Part shown: positions 19,529-22,955 of the stretch, one piece after another
Numbering within the stretch: position 1 is the stretch's first letter
How the letters are laid out: every line of letters starts with the position of its first letter
The notes under the pieces: model-generated
What the model was told of the DNA's origin: nothing
What the model saw: only the letters and a program-made list of their open reading frames with translations
Database searches by the model: none
Made by a program: the position numbers and the translations under genes
NCBI RefSeq assembly: GCF_000282595.1
Contig: NZ_AKIZ01000014.1
Span: 186,001 to 250,000, forward strand
Origin: Phyllobacterium sp. YR531
GTDB taxonomy: Bacteria; Pseudomonadota; Alphaproteobacteria; Rhizobiales; Rhizobiaceae
Reading direction: 5' to 3'
DNA: 64,000 nucleotides

Positions 19529-20197
19529 TCAAAAGGTGGCGAGGCTAGATCTTATTGGGCCAAGCCAATCCTTTTCAATATACGATGTGATCGACACAGC
19601 ACCTGTTGCAAGGAAGACAATCGATCCCTGTTTGGCAGCCAGCCGTAATTGGACTCGCTCGATCTCATACGCAAACTCACCAACAAATTTTGTTGCTGCT
19701 GCAGCTACGTCAACTGTACCTTTGACTAGTAATTGCGCGACCGCGCCCTGTCCTATTCGGATAGAACCGATTTGCACCTTGTCAATTAGGCCTCGTCGGT
19801 CGGCATGCTCTTGGAACTTAGCCGCCCATACTAACGGATCAACGGCGATCGGCGATATGGTAAAGTCGAAGTTCACTGCTTCTAATAACTTGCTAATAAG
19901 CCGGGACGAACCGCGTCCCGCATCTTTAATTTCAAATCCTGTAGGCCCCTCGCTGATGCTAAATTCAGACTTTCGATATTCGACAAGTTCGAATTTTTCT
20001 TCCCTTCCGAATGGATCGATGACTGCTTCCGTTCTCTGAATACGTTCTACAAATGTTGCTTGGATACGGATTGGCCCCGCTTGCTCGACCAAGAAACCTT
20101 CATCTGCGCCATCTACATATCGCAGGGCTTGAAGTCGATCCCCAAATTCGCGGATTGAATTGCTGCTCGACATCTCAAACCACCGATACCTGCTCAT
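19529..20197 (-). CDS. Unknown protein, third gene of the foreign three-gene cassette
   Basis: A 222-residue soluble protein that I do not recognise. The first half looks beta-rich (GPIRIQATFVERIQR, EKFELVEYRKSEFSIS). The second half alternates helix and strand, and a hydrophobic stretch (GSIVFLATGAVSITSYI, about residues 193-209) is too short and polar to call a membrane helix with confidence. The ATG at 20197 overlaps the previous stop (ATGA), so it is translationally coupled. No catalytic motif is evident. Base composition is AT-richer than flanking genes. In context it is probably a partner or specificity subunit of the cassette; this is inference. Confidence 0.72.
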   Translation of the reverse strand: MSRYRWFEMSSSNSIREFGDRLQALRYVDGADEGFLVEQAGPIRIQATFVERIQRTEAVIDPFGREEKFELVEYRKSEFSISEGPTGFEIKDAGRGSSRLISKLLEAVNFDFTISPIAVDPLVWAAKFQEHADRRGLIDKVQIGSIRIGQGAVAQLLVKGTVDVAAAATKFVGEFAYEIERVQLRLAAKQGSIVFLATGAVSITSYIEKDWLGPIRSSLATF

Positions 20198-21300
20198 GGC
20201 TTTGCGGCTTTCGTATCGCGTTCGTTTCTTAGGGTTGAGATAACTAGTCTGGCCGCCCCCTCAAGCAACGCGAATAGCTCTTTCCTTACTAGATCACTTG
20301 GGATTCTAAAGTGTGATGGGTATCGACCACGCGTAGAGCGTTTCGAATGTCTAGCAAGGTATCGGAAACCAGTTCCACCACGCCCATCTTCAAATGAGAC
20401 CTCAAATTGAACGCGATCCCAAGGATCTGACATCTGGACTGCCACCCAAGTCATCGAAGTAATAAAAAAGCCACTCTCATTGAGTTGCCGATACTGTGGT
20501 GAGGCTAGAAGGTTTGCTCCGTTAAGGGCAACATCTTCAACAAGGTGGAGCATTTTCGCAGAAGCGGATTCGATCCCATCGTCTTCGTCGCTTTCGACAT
20601 CTTCCTCTTCTCTTAGATCCGCGGAAACCTTAAGTCTCGTTACGGTTTCAGTCCTATAGTTGGGTATCCCTGATATCAGTTCGATGAAAAACTTAGTGCG
20701 CTTCTCTGATTCAAGATCAGAGACCGATATCTCATCTTGAATTAACACCTCCTTCTTGCGCTTCTCAAGCTTATCTACAAGATTTGCAACTAGCTCGCGT
20801 CCTTTATCTGTGGCGGGGAACCGGACTGTGACTTCGTCATCAACCATTCGGAACTCAAGATGTGCTGCCTTATTTTGCCGTTGAAGTAAGCGTGTTCGAG
20901 ATAAGTCAAATTCACTATACTCAACTGTAGCGGCCACATTTGACGCACCACTCGGCGGGACAGTTATACGTTCGGTTGATCCAACCTCTTTCGCGTATTC
21001 AGTAAAAACCGCCTTGATCTCGTCTGCGTTGATGTTGGCCTTAAGAACAAGTGAGGTTGTACGCTCATTTCGCATTCCAGGCTCACCCTGTTTTACAAGG
21101 CCCGCAACGTCATCAAAATCGTGGGGTAACATCGAAAGAAAATCTGCCAAATCAGATCTTGAGGCTTTGTTGGAGCAAAAAATGCGTCGGTCTCGAACGA
21201 GCTCATGCAATACAGTCTCTGACATACGCTGCCGAGCTGAGTACATTAGATCAAAAAGCTCTTTATCTGTCGCAAAGAGTTGTTGAAATTTATCCCGCAT
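20194..21300 (-). CDS. Unknown protein with acidic linker, second gene of the three-gene cassette
   Basis: A 368-residue protein without a family I can name. The N-terminal third is helical (FQQLFATDKELFDLMYSARQ). The middle is charged and probably coiled (residues about 185-215, EKRKKEVLIQDEISVSDLES). An acidic linker, DLREEEDVESDEDDGIES, follows around residues 231-248. The C-terminal part is a mixed alpha/beta domain (ITSMTWVAVQMSDPWDRVQF) ending in a helix. It overlaps the upstream gene by 11 nt and the downstream gene by 4 nt, so the three are made together. No nuclease, ATPase or helicase motif is visible. The acidic linker could be a protein-interaction or DNA-mimic segment, which is speculative. 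Confidence 0.75.
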   Translation of the reverse strand: MRDKFQQLFATDKELFDLMYSARQRMSETVLHELVRDRRIFCSNKASRSDLADFLSMLPHDFDDVAGLVKQGEPGMRNERTTSLVLKANINADEIKAVFTEYAKEVGSTERITVPPSGASNVAATVEYSEFDLSRTRLLQRQNKAAHLEFRMVDDEVTVRFPATDKGRELVANLVDKLEKRKKEVLIQDEISVSDLESEKRTKFFIELISGIPNYRTETVTRLKVSADLREEEDVESDEDDGIESASAKMLHLVEDVALNGANLLASPQYRQLNESGFFITSMTWVAVQMSDPWDRVQFEVSFEDGRGGTGFRYLARHSKRSTRGRYPSHFRIPSDLVRKELFALLEGAARLVISTLRNERDTKAAKP

Positions 21301-22282
21301 ATTCCATCCCTATCTCTTCGGTTGAATAAGACGTAAGCATTTCAGGAATAGATGAGAGCGAGATTTTCTCCAGCCGTTTCGCAAATTCAGAATCATCGTT
21401 GTTGGTGCTGACTGATCCAAGATATTGCTGAATCGCTTTTTGCAATGTCATAGACGCTTTTGTATCTTCTGCTGGCACCTTGATTATTATCCGCAGCTTA
21501 CGTTCAAATAACTGATAGTGACGCAAGTAGTCGATTATATACATCAGACCTTCTACGGAAGTTTTTCTTTTATGAAAAATAACAATACCCTGCCGTGTGT
21601 CATCCTCATCTAAATATTGCATAATGATCCAAGGAGAAGTTAGCATCTCTAATGTCGCGGCTCTGGCCTGCTGGAAGTTGGTTTGACGAACAAGTTGCGG
21701 ATAATAGAAACTGCATCGTTCACGCGATGGCAACTTTAATTCGTCGTCATGAATTCCGCGCATCTGACGTATCTCACGAGCAACGCGATCAAGCCAGTTG
21801 ATGTCATCAGGACCCATTATGTACAAACGAGCGTTACTGTTGATAACAATATCGTCCTGGCGGAGGTCGGATAACAAAGTGTCGAATCCAGCATCATAAT
21901 TAGTGTCGTGATTGTAGACAAAAAGCAGTCCAGAAATTTCAGGAGTGCAATCATTGTGCGTGTACGACGACTGCCATTCATCGCTAATTGCGGCGCAAGC
22001 AATCTGTTTGGCTAAGCTAATTACAGCACCCTTGATTGCAGTTTTTGTGATCGAAGACTTTCCGTAGCTCTTGAGGTCGCATTGAATGTATCTGCGGGTC
22101 GTTGAATAGGGTTCGTCATAATAGAAGACCACGTCTGTGGGATGGGTTTTAACTCCGTGAGTCTCAGGTTGCTCACAGGTCCAATTCTCGTTTGTCGGGC
22201 CAATTTTTTTCCATAGAAATTCACTAAACAAAGTATCCGAAATAATTTCAGCCATTCGACCGATATTGACTGTTTCCGCCAT
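21290..22282 (-). CDS. Putative PD-(D/E)xK-fold protein, first gene of the three-gene cassette
   Basis: A 330-residue protein. Near the N-terminus it shows the spacing of a PD-(D/E)xK endonuclease core: a helix with Glu12 (GRMAEIISDTLFSEFLW), then PTDVVFYY with Asp50, then YIQCDLKSY with Asp69-Leu70-Lys71. That order (helix Glu, Asp strand, DxK strand) is what restriction-endonuclease-like folds show, but the assignment is by eye. The rest (GLLFVYNHDTNYDAGFD, RLYIMGPDDINWLDRVAREI) is unfamiliar. The ribosome-binding site before ATG 22282 is weak. It leads a three-gene overlapping operon just 3' of tRNA-Thr, of lower GC than its neighbours. Confidence 0.72.
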   Translation of the reverse strand: MAETVNIGRMAEIISDTLFSEFLWKKIGPTNENWTCEQPETHGVKTHPTDVVFYYDEPYSTTRRYIQCDLKSYGKSSITKTAIKGAVISLAKQIACAAISDEWQSSYTHNDCTPEISGLLFVYNHDTNYDAGFDTLLSDLRQDDIVINSNARLYIMGPDDINWLDRVAREIRQMRGIHDDELKLPSRERCSFYYPQLVRQTNFQQARAATLEMLTSPWIIMQYLDEDDTRQGIVIFHKRKTSVEGLMYIIDYLRHYQLFERKLRIIIKVPAEDTKASMTLQKAIQQYLGSVSTNNDDSEFAKRLEKISLSSIPEMLTSYSTEEIGMEYAG

Positions 22283-22593
22283 AATAACTCGCGCATCAGG
22301 TTAAATTTAATAGACAATCTACCAACAGTGCTGACAAGTTAAGTGCCAATTATATACAAATCACACCGTCCACAGCTTTAATAACAACTGAAGATATCGC
22401 GGTATAAAAAGGAAAGTTGTATTGAGATTGTAAGAGCGTTTGGATTTGAACGCGACTTTTCTAATATAATTGGCGTTTACTCAGGGTTTGTCGTGCACCA
22501 GAGTTGCTGTATTTCCCGAGAGTACTAGGCTCAAAATGTCGTATGCTTTGTATAGCGGCGCCGGGCTTGATTATTGATTCTACTTTAAGAAAA
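22283..22593. other. AT-rich intergenic stretch with possible cassette promoter
   Basis: There is no gene here. On the minus strand a consensus TATAAT lies at 22349-22354, 67 nt before the cassette's first ATG, but I cannot find a good -35 at the usual distance. A small inverted repeat (GCGTT/AACGC, about 22436-22453) is the only other structure. The stretch also has to hold the end of the tRNA-Thr transcript; no clear terminator is seen. Confidence 0.4.
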
Positions 22594-22669
22594 TGGTGCC
22601 GCTTCCCGGAATCGAACCGAGGACCCCATCATTACGAATGATGTGCTCTACCAACTGAGCTAAAGCGGC
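22594..22669 (-). tRNA. tRNA-Thr (anticodon CGU)
   Basis: The minus strand folds as a full 76-nt cloverleaf. The acceptor strand is GCCGCTT, the D-arm AGCTCAGTTGGTAGAGC, and the anticodon stem CATCA/TGATG encloses TTCGTAA, so the anticodon is CGT. The T-arm contains GGTTCGATTCC, and CCA is encoded (22594-22596). Its 3' end faces the three-gene cassette, the usual side for tRNA-targeted insertions, but I saw no repeat of its 3' end on the far side. Confidence 0.96.
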
Positions 22670-22809
22670 GGGAACACTGGTTTCCCTCATCCAAAAGCGC
22701 CAATGTTAACCGGCCGTGGATGACGCGCCTGATACCGTCATTGCGTGATAATTGCAAGCGTTGAGAAATAGCGTTCAGGTTAATGGGTATGCGGGATTGC
22801 ATGTTCGTG

Positions 22810-22934
22810 GTGCGTGGTTCGACGCGGCTCACCATGAGGAAGGTGGAGAGTTGCAAGCCAATCGCCTGCGTTGCAGAACTTGGCACTCTGCGATCAACTA
22901 CCTTCCTCATGGTGAGCCGCGTCGAACCACGCAC
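22810..22934. repeat. Large perfect inverted repeat, 35-nt arms
   Basis: Positions 22810-22844 and 22900-22934 are exact reverse complements over all 35 nt, separated by a 55-nt loop. The arms contain TTCGACGCGGCTCACCATGA. The element fills most of the gap between tRNA-Thr and the nitronate-monooxygenase-like gene and begins 22 nt beyond that gene's stop. It encodes no plausible protein. It resembles the dispersed intergenic palindromes of rhizobia and Brucellaceae; transcribed from either strand it would form a very stable hairpin. Confidence 0.85.
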
Positions 22935-22955
22935 AAAATACATGCAATAACAAAA

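What the first reader, a model, noticed from the sequence alone, without database searches (positions are those of the whole stretch)
19529..22282. Unrecognised three-gene overlapping cassette of foreign composition beside tRNA-Thr
Seen: three minus-strand genes (330, 368 and 222 residues) overlap by 11 and 4 nt, so they are one functional unit. Their GC is near 42-47% in the lines I counted, against roughly 55% around them. They sit just 3' of tRNA-Thr. None matches a family I can name. The first has a PD-(D/E)xK-like core. Known: compact, AT-rich nuclease operons next to tRNA genes are often anti-phage or anti-plasmid systems. Inference: an undescribed or poorly described defence module, with genes two and three as partner or sensor subunits.
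Basis: partly seen in the sequence, partly recalled or inferred. Interest (0 to 1): 0.75.

Follow-up and report, generated by a model that had tools for sequence, protein, structure and literature searches.

The report
A 3HP anti-phage gene trio
Three overlapping genes beside a tRNA gene are a distant copy of 3HP, a published bacterial anti-phage system of unknown mechanism; its first protein looks like a DNA-cutting enzyme and its second may be a DNA-gripping protein.

Summary
Three minus-strand genes (330, 368, 222 aa) overlap by 11 and 4 nt, have 45.8% GC against about 57% in flanking genes, and lie 311 bp from the 3' end of tRNA-Thr. The genes match PADLOC Hp1, Hp2 and Hp3 in order. These models fit end to end an E. 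coli P2-like cassette at the gpA-gpQ hotspot; Rousset et al. 2022 cloned a three-gene system from that hotspot that protects against phage P1 and has "no clear predicted domain", now called Rst_3HP.

Added here: order A-B-C in 151 of 160 loci, 8 of the 9 exceptions cut by contig ends; E3, D50, D69, K71, C36 and C96 identical in 168 of 168 Hp1 sequences; confident models of Hp1 and Hp2; Hp2 resembles inner-kinetochore chains and RnlA by fold, at low TM-score. The tRNA-Thr 3' end is a synteny break point. Likely mechanism, inferred: Hp2-Hp3 recognise invading DNA and Hp1 cuts it. New member of a known kind.

The parts
21290..22282 (-). gene A: Rst_3HP Hp1 homologue, predicted PD-(D/E)xK nuclease (330 aa)
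   Evidence: PADLOC PDLC03004 Hp1 7.3e-53; phrog_7059 5.9e-96; E3, P48, D50, D69, K71 in 168 of 168; model pLDDT 91.6
22070..22144 (-). codons 47-71 of gene A: HPxD ... DLK catalytic-type motif (D50, D69, K71)
   Evidence: codon positions counted from the sequence and alignment; helix 2-21, strands 46-49, 51-56, 62-73, helix 80-97
20194..21300 (-). gene B: Rst_3HP Hp2 homologue; helical N-terminus followed by alpha/beta domains resembling inner-kinetochore chains and RnlA (368 aa)
   Evidence: PADLOC PDLC03005 Hp2 1.2e-34; phrog_6531 3.4e-65; model pLDDT 91.7; Foldseek
19529..20197 (-). gene C: Rst_3HP Hp3 homologue (222 aa), fold not determined
   Evidence: PADLOC PDLC03006 Hp3 5.1e-05; phrog_5850 6.1e-22; order conserved
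22283..22593 (.). AT-rich (38.6% GC) gap between tRNA-Thr and gene A; expected, not shown, to hold the promoter of the operon
   Evidence: the consensus scan found no minus-strand promoter-like site inside it
22594..22669 (-). tRNA-Thr(CGT); its 3' end is the break point of synteny in the genus

Best explanation
This is a horizontally acquired member of the Rst_3HP anti-phage family, sitting as cargo at the 3' side of tRNA-Thr. Shown here: family membership, fixed gene order, an invariant nuclease-type motif in Hp1, and confident models of Hp1 and Hp2. Inferred: the three proteins work as one complex in which Hp2 (alpha/beta domains with a TBP-like or CENP-N-like look behind a helical N-terminal domain), probably with Hp3, binds a feature of invading phage DNA, perhaps a replication or packaging intermediate or an RNA:DNA hybrid. 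Binding licenses the Hp1 PD-(D/E)xK active site to cut that DNA. No methyltransferase, helicase or ATPase was recognised in the cassette, so it does not look like classical restriction-modification.
For: PADLOC Hp1, Hp2 and Hp3 in order. The same three models match an E. coli P2-like cassette over 333/333, 359/359 and 227/227 positions at 792, 820 and 520 bits, and that cassette lies between the portal (gpQ) and replication endonuclease (gpA) genes, with a few small genes on either side: the hotspot from which Rousset et al. cloned a three-gene system that protects against P1 (section read). A public record labels the homologous Vibrio phage trio Rst_3HP. A-B-C on one strand in 151 of 160 loci. 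Distance matrices of the three proteins correlate at 0.93, 0.83 and 0.85 against at most 0.07 in 500 permutations. E3, D50, D69, K71 in 168 of 168. Hp1 secondary structure helix-strand-strand-strand-helix-strand around the motif, pLDDT 91.6. Hp2's best fold matches are inner-kinetochore chains (E 4.5e-5, prob 1.00); RnlA follows (E 1.0e-3, prob 0.99).
Against: No PDB chain matches Hp1 at E below 0.001; the best row is APOBEC3G, and acetyl-CoA carboxylase and others rank among HamA, Cap4 and MspJI; query-normalised TM is 0.25 or less in the 50 rows listed of 871. The viral library also gave none below 0.001. Kinetochore rows for Hp2 have TM 0.19-0.32 and rmsd 10-15 A, an unrelated enzyme (spermine synthase) also reaches E 1.7e-3 with prob 1.00, and no sequence search supports the link (in one search only 25 of 39 families were shown). 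Hp3 matches its PADLOC model weakly (5.1e-05) and its fold was not predicted. Window proteins are 12-45% identical to the nine phage and plasmid relatives aligned, so phage range may differ. Nothing here measures activity.
Confidence: 0.55

Rival explanations
1. Abortive-infection version: the complex is idle until Hp2-Hp3 sense a phage product, and Hp1 then cuts host and phage DNA alike, killing the cell before phage release.
For: PD-(D/E)xK effectors of this kind exist (recalled); Cap4 appears among the weak Hp1 fold matches. The one published protection that I saw, against P1, fits a phage-specific trigger. Hp2 resembles RnlA, a toxin released on phage T4 infection that can degrade host mRNA (passages of PMC3710099).
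Against: No separate antitoxin or nucleotide-signal synthase was recognised in the cassette. No datum here separates direct from suicidal cutting.
Confidence: 0.25
2. RNA or RNA:DNA-hybrid cutting: Hp2's TBP-like part recognises hybrids, as the TBP-like domain of RNase HIII does, and Hp1 cuts transcripts or primers of the phage.
For: RnlA-like fold of Hp2. PMC3710099 passages describe a TBP-like domain of RNase HIII that binds DNA-RNA hybrids and is fused in some RNase LS proteins.
Against: PD-(D/E)xK enzymes mostly cut DNA (recalled). The RnlA resemblance is fold-level only.
Confidence: 0.1
3. Non-defence cargo: a DNA-processing or maintenance operon of integrating elements, kept for the element's own benefit.
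For: Relatives lie in P2-like, Pf-like filamentous and other phage records and in plasmids; the tRNA-Thr 3' end is a break point.
Against: A three-gene system from the same E. coli hotspot protects against P1 when cloned. The same chromosomal tRNA site holds defence-type genes in three of nine same-genus loci looked at.
Confidence: 0.08

Closest known systems
Rst_3HP (Hp1-Hp2-Hp3), Rousset et al. 2022, PMC9122126
   Same: All three families, same order, same strand; the PADLOC models fit the E. coli P2-like copy end to end
   Different: About 33% identity in Hp1 to the E. coli plasmid-record copy; this copy is chromosomal-type DNA beside tRNA-Thr rather than between gpA and gpQ of a P2-like prophage; activity untested
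HamA of Hachiman (PF08878)
   Same: PD-(D/E)xK-type defence nuclease (recalled); HamA structures are among the weak Hp1 fold matches
   Different: No profile-profile similarity (thin HamA alignment of 5 sequences); no helicase recognised in the cassette
RnlA (RNase LS toxin)
   Same: Part of the Hp2 fold
   Different: No sequence match, and one long helix ends the Hp2 model; the cassette pairs it with a nuclease-type protein and Hp3
CENP-N / Chl4 and CENP-L / Iml3 of the eukaryotic inner kinetochore
   Same: Best PDB fold matches of Hp2: chains N or NN of kinetochore complexes, taken as CENP-N or Chl4 from the chain letter; rows that name CENP-N and Iml3 follow. Helical N-terminus before TBP-like domains in CENP-N is recalled
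   Different: No sequence similarity found; TM-scores of 0.19-0.35; bacterial defence context
RdgC (PF04381)
   Same: One Pf-like phage record names the third gene RdgC-like exonuclease
   Different: RdgC is not among the 12 Pfam families matched by any of 80 Hp3 sequences; no profile-profile similarity

Membership tests
Rst_3HP | Homologues of Hp1, Hp2 and Hp3 | tested here: met
   7.3e-53, 1.2e-34 and 5.1e-05 against PADLOC; the same models fit the E. coli copy end to end
Rst_3HP | Adjacent, same strand, order Hp1-Hp2-Hp3 | tested here: met
Rst_3HP | Carried by prophages or other mobile elements | tested here: inconclusive
   Family: 8 phage and 21 plasmid records; DefenseFinder paper says mostly on prophages (one passage). 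This copy: foreign composition and a break at the tRNA 3' end, but no repeat of the tRNA end of 11 nt or more between 10 and 30 kb; I did not annotate the whole window, so an integrase elsewhere is not excluded
Rst_3HP | Anti-phage activity (P1 for the published member) | not testable with these tools
   published for one system
PD-(D/E)xK phosphodiesterase superfamily (Hp1) | P-x-D ... (D/E)-x-K motif with a helix before it (pattern recalled) | tested here: met
   P48, D50, D69, K71, E3 in 168 of 168, near-duplicates included; helix 2-21
PD-(D/E)xK phosphodiesterase superfamily (Hp1) | Structural match to solved members | tested here: inconclusive
   HamA E 0.025, Cap4 0.055, MspJI 0.079, none below 0.001, unrelated folds rank with them
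PD-(D/E)xK phosphodiesterase superfamily (Hp1) | Metal-dependent nuclease activity | not testable with these tools
   needs purified protein
HamA / Hachiman | HamA profile match and HamB helicase partner | tested here: not met
   hhalign probability 0.2%; no helicase match among the three products
RdgC (Hp3) | RdgC profile match | tested here: not met
CENP-N / CENP-L homologue (Hp2) | Common ancestry shown by sequence or high-TM fold match | tested here: inconclusive
   Foldseek prob 1.00, E 4.5e-5 to 7.0e-4 for the top four rows, all kinetochore chains N or NN, but TM 0.21-0.30; spermine synthase also prob 1.00 at 1.7e-3; no sequence match seen
GapS4-type nuclease pair | GapS4a and GapS4b homology | not tested
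   PADLOC gave only Hp1-3 plus one weak Csm2 row; I did not check whether that library holds GapS4

The most novel reading that the evidence does not exclude
Hp2 (possibly with Hp3) is a prokaryotic counterpart of the kinetochore CENP-N/CENP-L DNA-gripping module, carried by phages and plasmids as the DNA sensor of a nuclease defence system. The eukaryotic inner-kinetochore fold would then have a relative, perhaps a source, in prokaryotic conflict systems.
Probability: 0.12. Interest if true: 0.85.

Novelty: new member of a known kind. Interest (0 to 1): 0.42.

Why it matters
3HP is listed by defence-gene finders, but its discovery paper found no clear domain and one later table files it under Unknown. 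An invariant nuclease-type motif in Hp1, a possible C-H-C metal site beside it, and a TBP- or CENP-N-like model for Hp2 give concrete residues to mutate and a defined hypothesis of DNA sensing plus cutting. The copy also shows the family as cargo of a tRNA-Thr site in a genus where the other 19 genomes searched lack it.

Tried and rejected
Pfam and NCBIfam gave only sub-threshold matches for the three window proteins. PDB sequence searches gave no credible match: none for Hp1, one row at E 3.3 for Hp2, eight rows at E 0.25 or worse for Hp3. The single-protein search of genome contigs found no relative; the alignment found 125, of which 80 were kept. HamA and RdgC kinship was rejected by profile-profile comparison; the alignments were small, since only open frames over each locus centre were used: 5 of 6 HamA loci and 12 of 20 RdgC loci. 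An RnlA profile comparison could not be made: PF15935 rang in 0 of 299 genomes and 0 of 14 controls, so that answer says nothing. DUF4518 matches in Hp2 members (9 of 80, best 1.5e-05; residues 19-77 in the one of ten members shown with a match) are a hint only. Fold search of Hp1 in the viral library gave nothing below 0.001. tRNA proximity is not a general trait of the family: 13 of 80 genome loci have a tRNA or tmRNA in the fetched stretch. dN/dS could not be computed because synonymous sites are saturated; pN is below pS in all nine comparisons. Promoter and terminator scans were not informative. One search, a paper search on CENP-N with defence words, was badly framed (its 8 listed papers hold no CENP-N) and is not used; one search replaced it.

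Full report
Observation. Three minus-strand genes lie at 21290-22282 (A, 330 aa), 20194-21300 (B, 368 aa) and 19529-20197 (C, 222 aa), overlapping by 11 and 4 nt. tRNA-Thr is at 22594-22669 on the minus strand, so the block is on its 3' side at a distance of 311 bp. Gene GC is 43.1, 46.6 and 48.4% against 57.1-57.8% for three flanking genes, and third-position GC is 42-44% against 59-67%.

Identity. PADLOC-DB gives A = Hp1 (7.3e-53), B = Hp2 (1.2e-34) and C = Hp3 (5.1e-05). PHROGs gives three families of unknown function at 5.9e-96, 3.4e-65 and 6.1e-22. Pfam and NCBIfam have nothing above their cut-offs. A Vibrio phage record labels the homologous trio Rst_3HP Hp1, Hp2 and Hp3, and its three proteins match the same PADLOC models. 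An E. coli P2-like copy matches those models over their full length at 792, 820 and 520 bits and lies between the portal (gpQ) and replication endonuclease (gpA) genes, with a few small genes on either side. I read the section of Rousset et al. [quoted passage not shown] That this very system bears the name 3HP is recalled, and agrees with the records above. The DefenseFinder paper (one passage of PMC9090908) says Rst_3HP is mostly prophage-borne. A table in PMC10855318 (passage) lists 3HP under Unknown. Searches for Rst_3HP (4 papers) and for 3HP with anti-phage terms (6 papers) listed eight different papers; no title or abstract start is about its mechanism. Of the eight I looked at passages of three. 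Most subscription papers are not held, so a published mechanism is not excluded.

Family anatomy. From an alignment of ten Hp1 proteins, 80 loci were kept of 125 in genome contigs and 80 of 95 in viral contigs. All three genes, same strand and in order A-B-C, were found in 151 of 160, near-duplicates included. Of the nine others, eight stretches end at a contig end before the trio is complete (in one of them, L107, Hp1 also ends early), and one (L089) has a split B and no detectable C. Junctions are mostly overlaps or gaps of a few bases; one B-C gap is 1,320 nt. The count is conditional on finding Hp1, so solitary Hp2 or Hp3 genes would be missed. Among 11 annotated records opened, ten show the full adjacent trio and one (L014) a shortened Hp1 followed by B and a short third gene. 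Pairwise distances of the three proteins over 103 dereplicated loci plus the window correlate at 0.93 (A-B), 0.83 (A-C) and 0.85 (B-C); 500 permutations reach at most 0.07. They travel and evolve together. By record title the genome loci include Alpha-, Beta- and Gammaproteobacteria, Campylobacterota, Acidobacteria, Verrucomicrobia, Armatimonadetes, Cyanobacteria and a myxobacterium, several of them short metagenome-bin contigs. Presence is patchy: 1 of 20 genomes in the genus, 1 of 247 in the family, 3 of 398 in the phylum sample, the window's own genome counted in each.

Hp1. E3, W24, C36, H47, P48, D50, D69, L70, K71, S72 and C96 are identical in all 168 aligned sequences, and a histidine lies between C36 and H47 in 168 of 168 (column 42 itself has H in 110 of 168). 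The model (pLDDT 91.6, pTM 0.90) has helix 2-21, strands 46-49, 51-56 and 62-73, helix 80-97 and strand 113-124: the usual PD-(D/E)xK order (recalled), with D50 and D69-x-K71 in or beside neighbouring strands. C36, the histidine and C96 may bind zinc; that is an inference, as distances could not be measured. Foldseek gives no match below 0.001. HamA, Cap4 and MspJI, all nucleases of this superfamily (recalled), appear at 0.025-0.08 among unrelated hits, and the top row is APOBEC3G. HamA kinship by sequence was not found.

Hp2. The model (pLDDT 91.7, pTM 0.85) has four N-terminal helices (12-72), then alpha/beta domains and a long last helix. The only four matches at E 0.001 or better, as the tool counts them, are chains N or NN of inner-kinetochore complexes (E 4.5e-5 to 7.0e-4, prob 1.00), which I take to be CENP-N or Chl4 from the chain letters; a row that names CENP-N follows at 1.5e-3, E. 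coli RnlA at 1.0e-3 (prob 0.99) and Iml3 at 3.4e-3 (prob 0.92). Against this: human spermine synthase also scores prob 1.00 at 1.7e-3, TM-scores are low (0.19-0.35 over the kinetochore and RnlA rows named here) and rmsd is above 10 A. It may be shared domain pieces rather than kinship. No paper held contains both 'CENP-N' and 'anti-phage'.

Hp3. It is the least conserved. Pfam and PDB searches gave no credible match, and an RdgC-like label in one phage record is not supported.

Site. DNA similarity between the window and nine same-genus loci stops at window 22584-22594, within 10 nt of the tRNA-Thr 3' end, in 9 of 9. In one search each of the 19 other genus genomes has an alignment over the tRNA that begins at query 22-35, which is window 22581-22594. 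Beyond it, five of nine loci looked at carry AT-rich genes (L025, L026, L028, L029, L033). Defence-type matches were found in three: an NsnB/OLD-type ATPase with an unmatched partner in L029, a Schlafen-AlbA_2 plus NB-ARC protein in L028, and MrcB_N and NOV_C proteins in L033. The two genes tested in L025 and the one in L026 matched nothing of note. L030 has only a TetR-like gene there (by eye), and L027, L031 and L032 have 55-64% GC on that side and were not scanned. The tRNA-Thr end is therefore a variable cargo site, partly with defence-type genes. No copy of the tRNA end of 11 nt or more was found between 10 and 30 kb of the window.

Mechanism. Most likely Hp2-Hp3 recognise invading DNA and Hp1 cuts it. 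Recognition and cutting are inferred; the motif, the models, the order and the membership are shown. Suicidal cutting and RNA or hybrid cutting remain open. Verdict: a new, divergent member of a known defence family with one tested member and no mechanism that I found.

Noticed in passing
window about 22785-22950: A dispersed intergenic repeat of about 130-150 bp, between tRNA-Thr and the next gene, matches at many places (at some of them on both strands) in most of 20 same-genus genomes; whole-query match counts run from 4 to 45 per genome. It looks like a palindromic interspersed element (kind recalled: RIME or Bru-RS type).
   Followed up: no
L028 6376-9000; L029 5846-8772; L033 2474-6561: Other likely defence cargo at the same tRNA-Thr 3' site in relatives: Schlafen-AlbA_2 plus NB-ARC protein; NsnB/OLD-type ATPase with an unmatched 355-aa partner; MrcB_N and NOV_C proteins.
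   Followed up: partly
L002 and L007: Filamentous Pf-like Pseudomonas phage genomes of about 13 kb carry the whole 3HP trio near a genome end; the main text of a paper on other Pf phages does not hold the term 3HP.
   Followed up: partly
L034 10935-16943: In Rhizobium cauense the trio is followed by an 808-aa protein with a Walker-A-like GKT motif and an ATPase-like gene, suggesting a larger defence island (read by eye).
   Followed up: no
L014 2585-5311: A Klebsiella plasmid record carries what looks like a decayed trio with a shortened Hp1.
   Followed up: no
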